Assembly: GCF_029888045.1 (NCBI RefSeq)
Contig: NZ_JARXRN010000020.1
Span: 429,151 to 493,150, forward strand
Length of the DNA stretch: 64,000 nucleotides
Direction of reading: 5' to 3'
DNA from: Luteimonas rhizosphaericola
GTDB taxonomy: Bacteria; Pseudomonadota; Gammaproteobacteria; Xanthomonadales; Xanthomonadaceae
This document shows positions 17,366 through 33,944 of the stretch, in pieces. The translations under genes and the position numbers were made by a program. The notes below the pieces were generated by a model that was not told where the DNA came from, did no database searches, and saw only the letters and a list, made by a program, of their open reading frames with translations. Each line of letters begins with the position of its first letter. Position 1 is the first letter of the stretch.

Positions 17366-18241
17366 CTACTCCGCGAACCGCGAGGCCATCCAGTCCCGCA
17401 GGTAGGCGAAGAGCTTTTCGCGATGCGCGCGCACGTAGAAGGTGTGGTCGCATTCGGGCCAGTACTCGCTGGCCATGTTCGGTGAGTCCATCACGCGGCC
17501 GAACGCTTCCCGCGCCTGGCGGCGGTGGTTGTGGTAGGAGGCCACGCCGCCGGTGTAGAGCATCAGCACCTGGGTGCCGCGCGCGTCGAGCGCGTGCAAC
17601 CGGCCGACCGCTTCCTCGCGCCTCGGAAAATCGCGCAGGTCGTCGTTGCCGACCGCGCGCGGTTCGCCATCGGCCTTGCGCAGCCGGCGGCGCAGTGCGC
17701 GCCACACCCGCGCGGGATTGAACAGGCGCGGCAGGTAGTGGCGGATCCGGTGGCCACGGGTGGCATAGCCGACGCCGTCGAGCAGCACCACGCCCGCCAC
17801 CCGCGCCTCCTGCGGCGCGAGGTTGAAGGCGTCGTCCGCGCCCGAGCACACGCCGCCGAGCACGAAGCGCCCGACGCCGGTCTCGCAGGTCACGACGTCC
17901 ATTGCCGCGCCGATCTCGTCGCGCTTGCGGCTGTCGCTGAGGCGGGTCGACAGCTGGCTGTCGCCGAGCCCGGACTGGTCGAAACGCAGCACCACGTACC
18001 CCTCGGCCGCCAGCCGCCGCGCCAGCTGCACGTACAGCCGGAACGGGCCCATGCGGTGCACGAGCCCCGCGTTGAGCAGGACCACCGCGGTCCGCCGCGG
18101 CGGCCGCCCGGTCGGCACGCTCAGCACGCCGACCAGCCCGTCGCCGAAGCCGACGACGCGTTCGTCCAGCACCGTCGCCGGCGCGGACGGCGCCCCCTGG
18201 TCGACCGGTGTTCCGGCGCGCACGGCGCCTTGCATGCTCAT
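17366..18241 (-). CDS. Alpha/beta hydrolase with Cys nucleophile (exosortase-locus hydrolase-1 type)
   Basis: 291 residues. Alpha/beta-hydrolase fold: TAVVLLNAGLVHRMGPFRLYVQLARRLAAEGYVVLRFDQSGLGDS, nucleophile elbow GGVCSGADDA with Cys132 in place of Ser (GxCxG, as in dienelactone hydrolases), and a likely catalytic His in CDHTFY near the C-terminus. The N-terminal GFGDGLVGVLS and the FRLYVQLAR segment resemble hydrolase 1 of exosortase-A EPS loci (TIGR03100-like, from memory). Its ATG overlaps the TGA of the NRPS gene (ATGA), so it is the last gene of the megasynthase operon. Possible roles: release or editing thioesterase, or acyl transfer to the EPS. An ATG at 18235 is an alternative start. 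Confidence 0.82.
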   Translation of the reverse strand: MSMQGAVRAGTPVDQGAPSAPATVLDERVVGFGDGLVGVLSVPTGRPPRRTAVVLLNAGLVHRMGPFRLYVQLARRLAAEGYVVLRFDQSGLGDSQLSTRLSDSRKRDEIGAAMDVVTCETGVGRFVLGGVCSGADDAFNLAPQEARVAGVVLLDGVGYATRGHRIRHYLPRLFNPARVWRALRRRLRKADGEPRAVGNDDLRDFPRREEAVGRLHALDARGTQVLMLYTGGVASYHNHRRQAREAFGRVMDSPNMASEYWPECDHTFYVRAHREKLFAYLRDWMASRFAE

Positions 18242-21200
18242 GGGGTGTTGTCCTGGATCAGGGAAGCGACCTCGGCTACGGCCCGTCGCGGAAAGACCTG
18301 CGCCTCGAATCGCGAGGCATCGCGCCAGTCGGGCCGGTCGTTGGCCTGCAGCACGCAGTGGTCGACGTCGATCCCGGCCTCGCGCTGCGCGGCGACGAAC
18401 TCCTCCGCCACGGCCGCGTCTTCCCCCCACGACAGAACCCGCACGCGGCTCCCGCGCGGCAGCGCGACGCTGCTGTAATCGAGCGCGTCGAGCTCCGCGA
18501 GCAGCGCCGGCGCCACGTCGAAACCGTGCAGTTCGTCCTCGCGCGCGAGCGCGCGGCCCTCGCGCAGGTAGCGGCCGGCGGCGGTCAGCTGCACGCGATG
18601 CTGCGCGCGCCATTCCGCAAGCATGAGCGCTCCGGACAACACCGGGTCCCACAGCACCAGGTCGACCGGCGCGTCCTGCGACGCCACCGCGGCCAGCACC
18701 GGCAGGCACGCGCTGCGCAGCGCGAGCACGCGCACGCGTCCGCCGCCCAGGCGCGCCTGCGCCTGGCGCAGGTCGTCGCGCATCCCGGCGAGCGACAGGT
18801 CCAGCCCGTCACCCGCCGATTCGCCGCTGCCGTACCAGTCGAAGCGCAGCGCGCGACCGCCGGCCGCGGCCAGCGTGTCGCACAGCGTCCACAGCGCGCG
18901 CTGGCAGACGACCCCTTCCTGCAGCAGCGGCGCCGGCACCAGCAGCGCGGGCATCGCGGAAGCGCCGTTGCCATCGCCGTGCAGCATGCCGAACAGCCGG
19001 TGCTCGTCGCGGCCGAAGAAACCGGGGCGGTCGCGCGCCGACAGGGCCGTTGCAGACACGGCGCGCTCCGCTGCGGGTGCCGCGGCGGTCTCCGGCGGCG
19101 GACCGTGCGCCGCATCGGGAAGCGACTGCAGCGGGATCTCGACCGCGAGATGGGCGAGCGTCTGGGTCGCCAGCGGCATCAGCCGGATGCGGTGGCCGGT
19201 CTCGCGCGAGACGCGGCTGGCCATCTTCGCCGCGAGCATCGAATGCCCGCCGAGATCGAAGAAGTTGTCCTGCGGCGCGACCTCCACGTCGAGCAGCTCG
19301 GCCCACAGGTCGGCCAGGTAGCGCACGCGCGCGTCCTCGTGACGGCTGCGCGCGCGCCCGGTCGCGTCCGCGGGCGCGGCGCGCAACGCGGACGGTGCGG
19401 GCAGCGCCTTGCGGTCGACCTTGCCGTTGGGCAGCAGCGGCAGCGCGTCGAGCACCAGGACGTGCTGCGGCACCATGTAGGCCGGCAGCGCCTGGCGCAG
19501 TGCCGCCAGCAACGCGGCTTCCGCCGGCGGAGCGCCGGTGGCGACCACGTAGGCCACCAGCCGCTGGTCGCCCGGCTGGTCCTCGCGCACCACGGCGACC
19601 GCGCGGCCCACCTGCGGCTGCGACTCGAGCACCGACTCGATCTCGCCCAGCTCGATGCGGTGGCCGCGGATCTTGACCTGGAAATCCATCCGCCCCTGGT
19701 GCTCGAGCACGCCGTCGTGGCGCCAGCGGGCGCGATCCCCGGTCCGGTACAGCCGCGGCGGCAGGCCGGTGCCGTGGTCCTGCGGCGCGATCGCATCGGC
19801 GATGAACTTCTCCGCCGTCAGCGCTTCGCGCGCGTGGTAGCCAAGGGTCACGCCGGCGCCGCCGATGCACAGTTCGCCCGACACGCCCGGCGGGCATGGC
19901 TGACCGCGCGGATCGAGGATCCACACCGTAGTGTTGGCGATCGGCCGCCCGACGTGGATGTCCGGCGCCTGCCCGTCGCGCGCGTGGATGCGCGCGCAGG
20001 TCGACCACACCGTGGTCTCGGTGGGCCCGTACATGTTCCACAGTTCGACGCCGCGTTCGAGCAGGCGCGCGGCCAGGTCCGGCGACATCGGCTCGCCGCC
20101 GCACAGCGCGCGCAGGCCCGGCGCCGGCCGCCAGTCGGCTTCGAGCAGCAGGTGCCAGGTCGACGGCGTGGCCTGCAGCACGGTCACCGCCTCGCGCGTG
20201 GCCAGCGCCGCAAGCTCCACGCCGTCGGCGGCCTGCTCGCGGCTGGCGAGCACGATCGTCGCGCCGGTGGCCAGCGGCAGGAACAGCTCCAGCACCGAGA
20301 TGTCGAACGAGGTGGTGGTGACCGCCAGCAGGCGGTCGCCTGCGCCGAGCCCAGGCGCCTCGCGCATGGCGTCGAGGAAGTTGATCACCGCGCCGTGGGG
20401 CACCACCACCCCCTTCGGCTTGCCGGTGGAGCCGGAGGTGTAGATCACGTACGCCGGCGCGTCGCGGCCGATCGCATCGGCGCCCGGAGGCAGGTCGGGT
20501 GCGCGCGCGATCTCGTCGGCATCGTCGTCGAGCAGCAGCAGGCGCTCGCGCGCCAGCGACAGCGGATCGGCGAGCGCGCCTTCGGCGACGACCTGGGCCA
20601 GTCCCGCATCCTCGACCATGTAGGCGAGGCGGTCGGCGGGATACGCCGGATCGAGCGGCACGTAGGCCGCGCCGGCGCGCCACACCGCCAGCAGCGTCGC
20701 CACCAGGTCCGGGGTGCGCTCCAGGCACACGCCGACGCGGTCGCGCGGGCCGACGCCGCGCGCCTGCAGCGCGGCGGCGATGCGGTCCGCCCGCGCATGC
20801 AGCGCGGCGTAGCCGAGCTCGACGCCGTCGGCGCGCAGCGCCACGGCGCCGGGCGCCTGCGCGGCGCGCGCCTGCAGCATCGCGTCCAGGTTGGCGTATG
20901 GCGGCAACGCGCGCGTGGTCGAGTTCCATTCCGCGAGGCGGGCGCGGTCGGCTTCGGACAGCAGGTTGGCGTCGCCGATCGCCTGGGTCGGCTGCTGGCA
21001 CAGCGATGCGAGCAGCGCGACGAAGCGGTCGCCGATCGCGCGCGCGCCCTCGGGGGTGATGATGTCGGCGTTGTAGCCCATCGCGCCCGACAGCCCGTGC
21101 GGGTGCTCCAGGAACCAGAGACCGAGGTCGCTGGCCATGCCCTTCTGGAACATCAGCAGGTGCTCGTGCCGCAGCGCGCCCCACGACAGGTTGCGCGCGC

Positions 21201-33068: not shown

Positions 33069-33161
33069 GCCAGTGCCACCCCGCCCGGCTCCGTGCCGGC
33101 TCTGGGGCTGGAAACGCATTGCGCGCGGGCCGGCGGCCAGCCGGGCGCCACGCGGTGAAGG

Positions 33162-33944
33162 TCAGCGCGCCCCGGGCGGGCCCGGCATATGAAGCAGCGT
33201 GGCCGCGACCCCCGGCATGGCCGCCACCGCCATCACCCAGTCCGCGCCGCACGCGACGTGGTGGATCCGGACCGGTTGCCCGTGCAACCGTTCGCCCGGC
33301 AGCGGCAGCGTGACCCCCGGAGGCGCCACGAACTCATCCATCTCCAGCTCGAGCCCGATACCGGCGGCCTTGAGCAGGGCCTCCTTGCGCACCCACAGGT
33401 CCAGCAGCGCGCGGCCGCGTTGCGCGTCGGGAAGTTCGGCCAGCACGGCGCGCTCCTGCGGATGCGCCACGCGCTCCTCGATCCCGATCATGTCCATCGC
33501 CCGCAGCGACGGTTCCAGGTCGATGCCGACCGGGCCCGTCGCGCTCACCGCGACCGCGACCCGGTCGTCGGAGTGGCTGAGGCTGGTGTACAGAACGTCT
33601 TCCGGGAGCCGGGGGCAACCCTTGGCGTCCCGCAGCAGGTTCACCGCATCCGGCGCACGGCCCAGCGCCTGCGCCAGCAGCAGCCGGTGCAGCGCATAGC
33701 CCAGGCGCAGCGCGTCGCGATGCGCCGGCAGGCGCTGGCGTGCGGCACGGGCGGCGGCTTCCGGCCCGATCAGGGCGTCGCAGACGTCCAGGTGCGCGGA
33801 CCAGGGCGCGAGGTCGAACACGGCGACCGCCACACCGGACGCCCCCGCCGCGCGCGTGGCGTCCGCGGGAAGCGCGCGCGCGAACGCCTCTGCCAGCCGA
33901 TGCCACGCCGGCGGCTCCAGCCCCGCTGCGTCGGGCGACTCCAT
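33162..33944 (-). CDS. 4'-phosphopantetheinyl transferase, Sfp type
   Basis: 260 residues, the usual length of Sfp/EntD-type enzymes. It moves the phosphopantetheine arm of CoA to the conserved Ser of carrier proteins. The Mg-binding motif is GIDLEP (Asp142, Glu144) and the second signature is LWVRKEALLKAAGIGL (Glu188, Lys192); SLSHSDDRVAVAVS is the usual upstream helix. The gene sits 93 bp before the hybrid NRPS-PKS on the same strand, so it is probably the first gene of that operon and activates its four carrier domains, and perhaps the ACP at 7300. The ATG at 33944 is chosen because the conserved length begins there. Confidence 0.93.
   Translation of the reverse strand: MESPDAAGLEPPAWHRLAEAFARALPADATRAAGASGVAVAVFDLAPWSAHLDVCDALIGPEAAARAARQRLPAHRDALRLGYALHRLLLAQALGRAPDAVNLLRDAKGCPRLPEDVLYTSLSHSDDRVAVAVSATGPVGIDLEPSLRAMDMIGIEERVAHPQERAVLAELPDAQRGRALLDLWVRKEALLKAAGIGLELEMDEFVAPPGVTLPLPGERLHGQPVRIHHVACGADWVMAVAAMPGVAATLLHMPGPPGAR

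What the first reader, a model, noticed from the sequence alone, without database searches (positions are those of the whole stretch)
17366..33944. Hybrid PKS-NRPS operon predicted to make a Pro-derived beta-amino acid joined to Gly-Gly, sitting inside an EPS locus
The sequence directly shows the order PPTase, (C')-A-T-KS-AT-ACP-AMT, C-A-T-C-A-T-hydrolase, hydrolase, with GTGA and ATGA overlaps between the last three genes. AT motifs (GHSVGEF, HAFHS) are of malonyl type, no reductive domains are present, and a PLP aminotransferase follows the ACP, as in mycosubtilin/iturin synthases. By-eye specificity codes: D-V-Q-F-I-A-H-V-V (Pro-like), D-I-L-Q-M-G-L-V-W and D-I-L-Q-L-G-M-V-W (Gly-like). The inferred chain is 3-amino-3-(pyrrolidin-2-yl)propanoyl-Gly-Gly. 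EPS genes flank the operon on both sides, so the product may be an EPS substituent, a signal or a cap.
Basis: partly seen in the sequence, partly recalled or inferred. Interest (0 to 1): 0.8.

Follow-up and report, generated by a model that had tools for sequence, protein, structure and literature searches.

The report
Peptide-polyketide assembly line in exopolysaccharide locus
A bacterial chromosome carries an optional four-gene block that probably builds a small proline- and glycine-based molecule and hands it over through two odd hydrolase-like proteins related to ones found beside sugar-coat genes, suggesting, but not proving, that the molecule ends up on the cell's sugar coat.

Summary
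The operon is real and its boundaries are right. Minus strand: PPTase 33944-33162; half-C-A-T-KS-AT-ACP-AMT 33119-25569; C-A-T-C-A-T-hydrolase 25572-18238; hydrolase 18241-17366. The AMT's nearest solved relative is the mycosubtilin AMT. hydr1 has a Cys nucleophile; hydr2 has Arg there. In 20 canonical hydr1 loci hydr2 was found next to hydr1 in 17 or 18, a ligase in 19, a decarboxylase in 18, an ACP-like ORF in 14; here hydr2 is fused behind the last carrier domain. I read the pair as a carrier-protein offloading device. In the family the cluster usually lies in EPS loci (37 of 42 mapped), with variable starter and mostly Gly-like last A domain. But in Variovorax, Xenophilus and one same-genus genome it lies far from EPS genes, so EPS attachment is plausible, not shown. 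The own genome has no exosortase. No paper found describes the product.

The parts
33162..33944 (-). 4'-phosphopantetheinyl transferase, 260 aa; presumably activates the operon's carrier domains
   Evidence: Pfam ACPS over cut-off; NCBIfam HetI-like, below cut-off
25569..33119 (-). gene 1, 2516 aa: C-terminal half of a C domain, A (Pro-like, DVQFIAHVV), T, KS, AT (malonyl-type motifs), ACP, class-III aminotransferase (AMT)
   Evidence: Pfam; motifs; code; half-C; AMT nearest mycosubtilin AMT 6kfm
18238..25572 (-). gene 2, 2444 aa: C-A(Gly-like)-T-C-A(Gly-like)-T with a C-terminal alpha/beta-hydrolase-fold domain of the hydr2_PEP type (about 18241-19044)
   Evidence: Pfam; codes; TIGR03101 54 bits, cut-off 203; nucleophile place held by Arg
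17366..18241 (-). gene 3, 291 aa: hydr1_PEP-like alpha/beta hydrolase with Cys nucleophile (GVCSG) and conserved His; proposed release/transfer enzyme
   Evidence: TIGR03100 87 bits, cut-off 168; C132 and H266 invariant in 36 sequences; model
15489..16817 (+). nucleotide-sugar dehydrogenase; left neighbour of the cassette
   Evidence: TIGR03026 over cut-off
14194..15492 (+). family 4 glycosyltransferase
   Evidence: Pfam
12929..14125 (+). family 4 glycosyltransferase
   Evidence: NCBIfam glycosyltransferase matches, below cut-off, incl. XrtA-system type
11246..11989 (-). family 2 glycosyltransferase
   Evidence: Pfam
7671..9209 (-). EpsB-type initiating sugar-phosphate transferase of XrtA systems; its homologue lies within 6 kb of the synthase in 28 of 42 mapped loci
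   Evidence: TIGR03013 over cut-off; relatives
7300..7560 (-). stand-alone acyl carrier protein
   Evidence: NCBIfam ACP matches, below cut-off
5720..7303 (-). AMP ligase of the exosortase-A-associated type
   Evidence: TIGR03098 461.7 bits, cut-off 592; PF00501 over cut-off
3825..4835 (+). polysaccharide deacetylase, a possible source of free sugar amines
   Evidence: PF01522 over cut-off
34153..35799 (-). beta-helix protein; right neighbour of the cassette, still present where the cassette is absent
   Evidence: Pfam, just below cut-off; relatives L294, L295

Best explanation
It is a working hybrid assembly line. The PPTase activates the carrier domains. Gene 1 loads proline, extends it once with malonyl-CoA and transaminates the beta-keto group to a beta-amine. 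Gene 2 adds two glycines. There is no ordinary thioesterase. The chain on the last carrier domain is taken over by a two-part device: the hydr2 domain, an alpha/beta-hydrolase fold with Arg at the nucleophile place, probably docks or positions the loaded carrier; hydr1, which has a Cys-His pair, takes the chain as a thioester and passes it on. In this family the acceptor is most likely an amino group of the exopolysaccharide or of its lipid-linked precursor, so the product is an EPS substituent whose starter residue varies between strains. Shown by computation: genes, domains, motifs, codes, the pairing of hydr2/hydr1 with carrier proteins, EPS synteny in the family, presence and absence as a block. 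Inferred: substrates, beta-amination, the acyl-transfer roles of hydr2/hydr1 and the EPS acceptor.
For: Domains and motifs. Codes; over 110 starters, Val-, Pro-, Thr- and Ser-like codes occur (names recalled), while 79 of 113 last A domains are Gly-like (both sets pooled, some genomes twice). AMT = mycosubtilin AMT homologue, E 1.2e-126. hydr1: G-x-C-S-[GAS] in 79 of 82 matches, some genomes twice; C132, H266 invariant in 36. hydr2: R110 in at least 90% of 32, at the strand-helix elbow of the model. In the 20 best of 29 over-cut-off hydr1 loci of another family: G-x-C motif in 20 of 20 hydr1, hydr2 ORF picked up upstream in 18 (L270 doubtful), 17 of them with G-x-R-x-G, ACP-like ORF by motif in 14, ligase match in 19, decarboxylase match in 18, some EPS-type match in 18. 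hydr2 in one open frame with an NRPS in 7 of 31 loci. All 27 fetched of the 32 hydr1-bearing family genomes have NRPS domains in the same stretch. EPS marker in 37 of 42 loci, EpsB within 6 kb in 28, hydr1 in 40. L294 and L295, same genus, have EPS-type genes at the same site but no match to PPTase, synthase, hydr2 or hydr1 in 18 kb. Deacetylase and nucleotide-sugar dehydrogenase in the locus. No exporter among the four genes.
Against: Clusters away from EPS genes in Variovorax L208, L213, Xenophilus L206 and same-genus G366; EPS markers in only 44 of 77 loci of the second set (short flanks, queries from one family; L209, counted as a miss, does have glycosyltransferases). hydr1 and hydr2 here score well below the curated cut-offs. 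In G022 and G067 hydr1 lies roughly 43 and 27 kb from the synthase, and some maps show no hydr2/hydr1 in the stretch held (G347, G100; several Dyella and Rhodanobacter loci). The genome holds no exosortase. Fold searches list generic esterases, lipases and thioesterases, not an acyltransferase (top 50 each). No metabolite data.
Confidence: 0.42

Rival explanations
1. An ordinary free small-molecule cluster (signal, antibiotic or metallophore). hydr1 simply hydrolyses or cyclises the chain off the last carrier; the position in EPS loci reflects a hot spot next to tRNA genes that collects accessory genes.
For: Clusters away from EPS genes in Variovorax and Xenophilus, with an RND pump beside it in L208 and L213; G366, where the sugar-transferase match sits near alaS, some 0.85 Mb from the cluster; the homologous region in Lysobacter niastensis was listed as an NRPS/T1PKS cluster without a known relative by antiSMASH (PMC8407736, whole text read; coordinates enclose L170); site beside tRNA-Arg/tRNA-Ser.
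Against: EpsB-type transferase and PPTase both upstream on the same strand in 19 of 42 loci; EPS markers in 37 of 42; no exporter in the operon; canonical hydr2/hydr1 lie beside EPS-type genes (18 of 20 loci).
Confidence: 0.4
2. hydr2/hydr1 are editing (type II) thioesterases that clear mis-primed carriers, and the real release is non-enzymatic cyclisation by the beta-amine or attack by an outside nucleophile.
For: No GxSxG at the elbow of gene 2's last domain; a free beta-amine could attack a glycyl thioester (general chemistry); hydr1 sometimes lies far away or is not seen (G022, G067, G347).
Against: hydr2 is in one open frame with an NRPS in 7 of 31 loci and lies next to an ACP-like ORF in canonical loci (14 of 20), as expected of an on-pathway step.
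Confidence: 0.13
3. The cluster is decayed and makes nothing.
For: Half condensation domain at the start of gene 1.
Against: Long intact frames and complete motifs, the same half domain in 26 of 81 stretches, AMT 88-96% identical in the nearest relatives with no stop inside.
Confidence: 0.03

Closest known systems
Mycosubtilin/iturin synthase subunit A (MycA), AMT-containing hybrid synthase
   Same: KS-AT-ACP followed by a class-III aminotransferase that makes a beta-amino acid (domain order of MycA recalled); AMT homologous over 447 residues
   Different: Mycosubtilin starts from a fatty acid and is released as a cyclic lipopeptide (recalled); here an amino acid is the starter, the chain is short, and there is no ordinary thioesterase
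Exosortase-A-associated ligase/ACP/PLP-decarboxylase/hydr2/hydr1 set of EPS loci (TIGR03098, 03099, 03100, 03101)
   Same: hydr2-hydr1 pair next to a carrier protein, Cys and Arg at the two elbows, EPS setting; the window's own EPS locus also has a decarboxylase (over cut-off), and a ligase and ACP (below cut-off) of this kind
   Different: Carrier is the last domain of an NRPS-PKS; hydr1/hydr2 below the curated cut-offs; no exosortase in the genome
Dlt system (D-alanylation of teichoic acids)
   Same: A-domain enzyme plus carrier used to decorate a cell-surface polymer (recalled; DltA profiles also match the A domains)
   Different: One amino acid, membrane acyltransferase DltB (recalled); none seen here
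Thiopeptidoglycan sheath of Sphaerotilus and Leptothrix
   Same: A precedent for a glycoconjugate polysaccharide with GalN and GlcA bearing thiol and amino groups in Burkholderiales (titles in reference lists of PMC11087309 and PMC11412304; introduction passage of PMC8264430); that it carries a peptide is recalled and from the name
   Different: Gene basis not in the passages seen; no genome of these genera was tested here

Membership tests
beta-amino-acid-forming hybrid NRPS-PKS (mycosubtilin type) | KS, malonyl-type AT, ACP, then AMT, followed by a C domain | tested here: met
beta-amino-acid-forming hybrid NRPS-PKS (mycosubtilin type) | AMT acts on the beta-keto thioester | not testable with these tools
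   inferred from homology
TIGR03100 hydr1_PEP | profile score over curated cut-off | tested here: not met
   87 bits, cut-off 168; I call it hydr1-like
TIGR03100 hydr1_PEP | Cys at the nucleophile elbow and C-terminal DH, as in over-cut-off members | tested here: met
   canonical members by motif, 20 of 20
TIGR03101 hydr2_PEP | profile score over curated cut-off | tested here: not met
   54 bits, cut-off 203
TIGR03101 hydr2_PEP | paired with hydr1; Arg at the elbow as in ORFs beside canonical hydr1 | tested here: met
   (those ORFs were picked by motif, not scored against TIGR03101)
exosortase A (XrtA) EPS system | XrtA-type EpsB, chain-length determinant and decarboxylase | tested here: met
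   TIGR03013, TIGR03007, TIGR03099 over cut-off
exosortase A (XrtA) EPS system | exosortase gene | tested here: not met
   PF09721: none in own genome; 35 of 39 genomes without, own included; 4 with one over the cut-off on another contig than the cluster
peptide-substituted exopolysaccharide | covalent peptide on the polymer | not testable with these tools
   needs chemistry

The most novel reading that the evidence does not exclude
hydr2/hydr1, two families with no assigned function, are a general two-part device that takes acyl, aminoacyl or peptidyl groups off carrier proteins and transfers them to exopolysaccharide; ligase-decarboxylase sets and whole NRPS-PKS lines are interchangeable suppliers, so these bacteria diversify their sugar coats with non-ribosomal peptide-polyketide side groups, here 3-amino-3-(pyrrolidin-2-yl)propanoyl-Gly-Gly.
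Probability: 0.33. Interest if true: 0.85.

Novelty: new variant of a known kind. Interest (0 to 1): 0.62.

Why it matters
If right, it gives a testable job to two hydrolase families that NCBIfam still lists only as hypothetical equivalogs of exosortase loci, shows non-ribosomal chemistry being used to decorate a bacterial sugar coat, and offers many Lysobacterales and Burkholderiales genomes with natural variants (different starter residues, with or without the aminotransferase) to test it. If the product is free instead, it is still a widespread orphan family of beta-amino-acid peptides with an unusual release step.

Tried and rejected
Rejected: that the last domain of gene 2 is an ordinary thioesterase (its only G-x-S-x-G, GESAG, lies before the elbow). 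Rejected: that an exosortase is present. Taken as a false positive: the tRNA-Ala called inside coding sequence at 18667-18757. Without use: literature search by specificity codes gave no paper and one off-topic paper; four searches for an NRPS-exosortase/EPS or Lysobacter link or for the hydrolase family's name held no paper; listings (15, 15, 12 and 12 of 47, 48, 20 and 17 papers) showed none on this system by title; the PEP-CTERM paper PMC1569441 has no occurrence of ligase, decarboxylase or hydrolase (term search). Fold searches list only generic alpha/beta hydrolases. My mistakes: one search translated the dehydrogenase in a wrong frame and is not used; one of nine proteins (12180-12672) was also out of frame. 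Counts: the 45 mapped loci come from 45 of 80 family genomes with a hydr1 or AMT match; one search's 42 leave out 3 loci without a KS hit; its second set (77 of 90 loci with a KS: 68 named, 9 others) repeats some genomes of the first, so the two are not added up; the 113 'last A domains' include misaligned and non-NRPS hits, kept as misses. One search returned the best 80 of 543 relatives, itself a capped list.

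
Full report
What is there. The reported block is real. On the minus strand, in order, lie a PPTase (33944-33162), gene 1 (33119-25569, 2516 aa), gene 2 (25572-18238, 2444 aa) and gene 3 (18241-17366, 291 aa), with GTGA and ATGA overlaps. Pfam gives A-T-KS-AT-ACP-aminotransferase for gene 1 and C-A-T-C-A-T for gene 2. The motifs for KS, AT, AMT, both C domains and all carriers are present. 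The start of gene 1 is the C-terminal lobe of a condensation domain without HHxxxDG; a C-domain profile finds a partial domain in 26 of 81 N-terminal stretches (the window twice, some genomes twice), a whole one in one (L202), and none in 54. In the own genome a Condensation search gives three matches: two over the cut-off in gene 2 and this half domain below it.

Substrates. That these mean Pro and Gly is recalled knowledge; no predictor was run. Among solved structures the strong matches of the first A domain include tyrocidine synthase 2 and gramicidin S synthase 2, whose first modules activate Pro (recalled). The AMT is closest to the mycosubtilin AMT (6kfm), E 1.2e-126 (profile search).

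Release. NCBIfam links gene 3 to hydr1_PEP (87 bits, cut-off 168) and the tail of gene 2 to hydr2_PEP (54 bits, cut-off 203), both below cut-off. hydr1 relatives have G-x-C-S-[GAS] in 79 of 82 matches, and Cys132 and His266 are invariant over 36 aligned proteins; the predicted model (mean pLDDT 86) puts Cys132 between a strand and a helix, the nucleophile elbow. In hydr2, Arg110 is conserved in at least 90% of 32 proteins and sits at the same elbow in its model (mean pLDDT 92). I then searched a second family, that of G637, for TIGR03100: 29 of 120 genomes have a match over the cut-off (weaker matches, in 93 of 120, are mostly general hydrolases, as 8 of 14 controls also ring) and I fetched the 20 best loci. 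By motif all 20 hydr1 have G-x-C (GLCD[AG] in 18, GEC in 2); a hydr2 ORF was picked up just upstream in 18 (L270 doubtful), 17 with G-x-R-x-G, and an ACP-like ORF in 14; a ligase match lies in the stretch in 19, a decarboxylase match in 18, and some glycosyltransferase, EpsB, O-antigen-ligase or sugar-dehydrogenase match in 18. In 7 of 31 loci, the window included, hydr2 is in one open frame with an NRPS. So the pair usually goes with a carrier protein. That it offloads the carrier is inference.

Setting. Left of the cassette are a nucleotide-sugar dehydrogenase, glycosyltransferases, an XrtA-type EpsB, an ACP, a TIGR03098-like ligase and a polysaccharide deacetylase. Beyond the window are a TIGR03099 decarboxylase and TIGR03007 chain-length protein over their cut-offs, a Poly_export protein over cut-off, and flippase-, O-ligase- and kinase-like proteins below cut-off. 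The genome has no exosortase by PF09721; of 39 genomes, own included, 4 have one over the cut-off, each on another contig than the cluster. Right of the cassette are one beta-helix gene, two tRNAs, a csrA-like ORF (by eye) and housekeeping genes.

Relatives. hydr1 has a match at E <= 1e-20 in 32 of 119 family genomes; 27 of the 32 were fetched and all 27 have NRPS domains in the same stretch. The AMT has matches at E <= 1e-60 in 70 of 395 family genomes, 63 of them at 52% identity or more by my count of the rows; the genus is patchy. Of these 80 genomes 45 were mapped; 42 loci have a KS, and of these 37 have at least one EPS marker, 28 have EpsB within 6 kb, 40 have hydr1 and 27 a PPTase match; 19 have PPTase and EpsB both upstream on the same strand. 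In 12 of 45 maps alaS is in the same stretch. Seven loci have KS but no AMT match. In two genomes of the same genus (G390, G123) the same site beside the two tRNAs and the beta-helix gene has EPS-type genes (glycosyltransferase, decarboxylase and beta-helix matches) but no match to PPTase, synthase, hydr2 or hydr1 in 18 kb; of two further genomes one shows only a sugar-dehydrogenase-like gene there and the other nothing of the kind. The starter code varies (110 starters), while 79 of 113 last A domains are Gly-like, misses included.

Results against. Outside the family the link to EPS loosens. A scan of named genomes gave the best 80 of 543 relatives, in Lysobacterales and Burkholderiales. In Variovorax L208 and L213 and Xenophilus L206 the flanks held, about 5 kb and 2.5 kb, show housekeeping-type genes, an RND pump or a MiaB-like protein (not every ORF was scanned). 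Over those genomes plus L212's and G366, TIGR03025 sugar-transferase matches exist in all five, but none within 100 kb of the cluster by coordinates on any contig; Glyco_transf_4 matches are many and scattered, and since contig numbers are not tied to accessions I could not exclude one 16 kb from L213. In G366 the cluster is at about 0.2 Mb and a sugar-transferase match over cut-off at 1.05 Mb, next to alaS. By contrast Thiomonas L227, L209 and Ideonella L218 have EPS or glycosyltransferase genes in the flanks. In the second set 44 of 77 loci with a KS have an EPS marker, with short flanks and queries from one family. Over a phylum sample, 14 of 398 genomes have an AMT match at E <= 1e-120. 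Several maps show no hydr2/hydr1 in the stretch held.

What is in print. Searches for exosortase plus nonribosomal plus exopolysaccharide plus hydrolase, for exosortase A plus NRPS, for Lysobacter plus EPS plus NRPS-PKS plus aminotransferase and for 'exosortase A system-associated' held no paper; the library is open-licence only. The homologous region of Lysobacter niastensis DSM 18481 (contig 5, 63268-117003) is listed as an NRPS/T1PKS cluster with no known relative in PMC8407736 (whole text); my locus L170 (79041-100507 of a contig titled Contig_5) lies inside it. A sheath glycoconjugate, thiopeptidoglycan, is known from Sphaerotilus and Leptothrix (titles in reference lists and an introduction passage); its genes were not examined.

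Verdict. A hybrid NRPS-PKS of known type with a new release arrangement and, in its own family, a strong but not universal link to EPS loci. The product skeleton is a fair inference, the offloading role of hydr2/hydr1 is my main new claim, and attachment to EPS is the likeliest fate in this family by a small margin, unproven.

Noticed in passing
window 1-17000 and L005: An XrtA-type EPS locus (EpsB, chain-length protein, decarboxylase over cut-off) in a genome with no exosortase by PF09721; 35 of 39 genomes, own included, likewise.
   Followed up: partly
window 854-3934, 9318-11000, 34153-35799: Three beta-helix proteins in one EPS locus; the second and third share a C-terminal tail (RVAP...LW..RD) that is not PEP-CTERM-like by eye.
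   Followed up: no
L294, L295 versus window 17366-33944: The four-gene cassette is absent as a block from the same site in two same-genus genomes.
   Followed up: partly
G063, G011, G015, G005, G082, G101, G048 (loci): Relatives with the PKS module but no aminotransferase match; their starter codes look Ser- or Thr-like (names recalled).
   Followed up: no
window 18667-18757: ARAGORN calls a tRNA-Ala inside coding sequence; most likely a false positive.
   Followed up: no
L208, L213: In Variovorax the synthase-PPTase-hydr2-hydr1 cluster stands beside an RND efflux pump, far from EPS-type sugar transferases.
   Followed up: partly
G366, about 0.2 Mb and 1.05 Mb: A same-genus genome carries a divergent cluster in split genes far from its alaS-side EPS-type gene.
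   Followed up: partly
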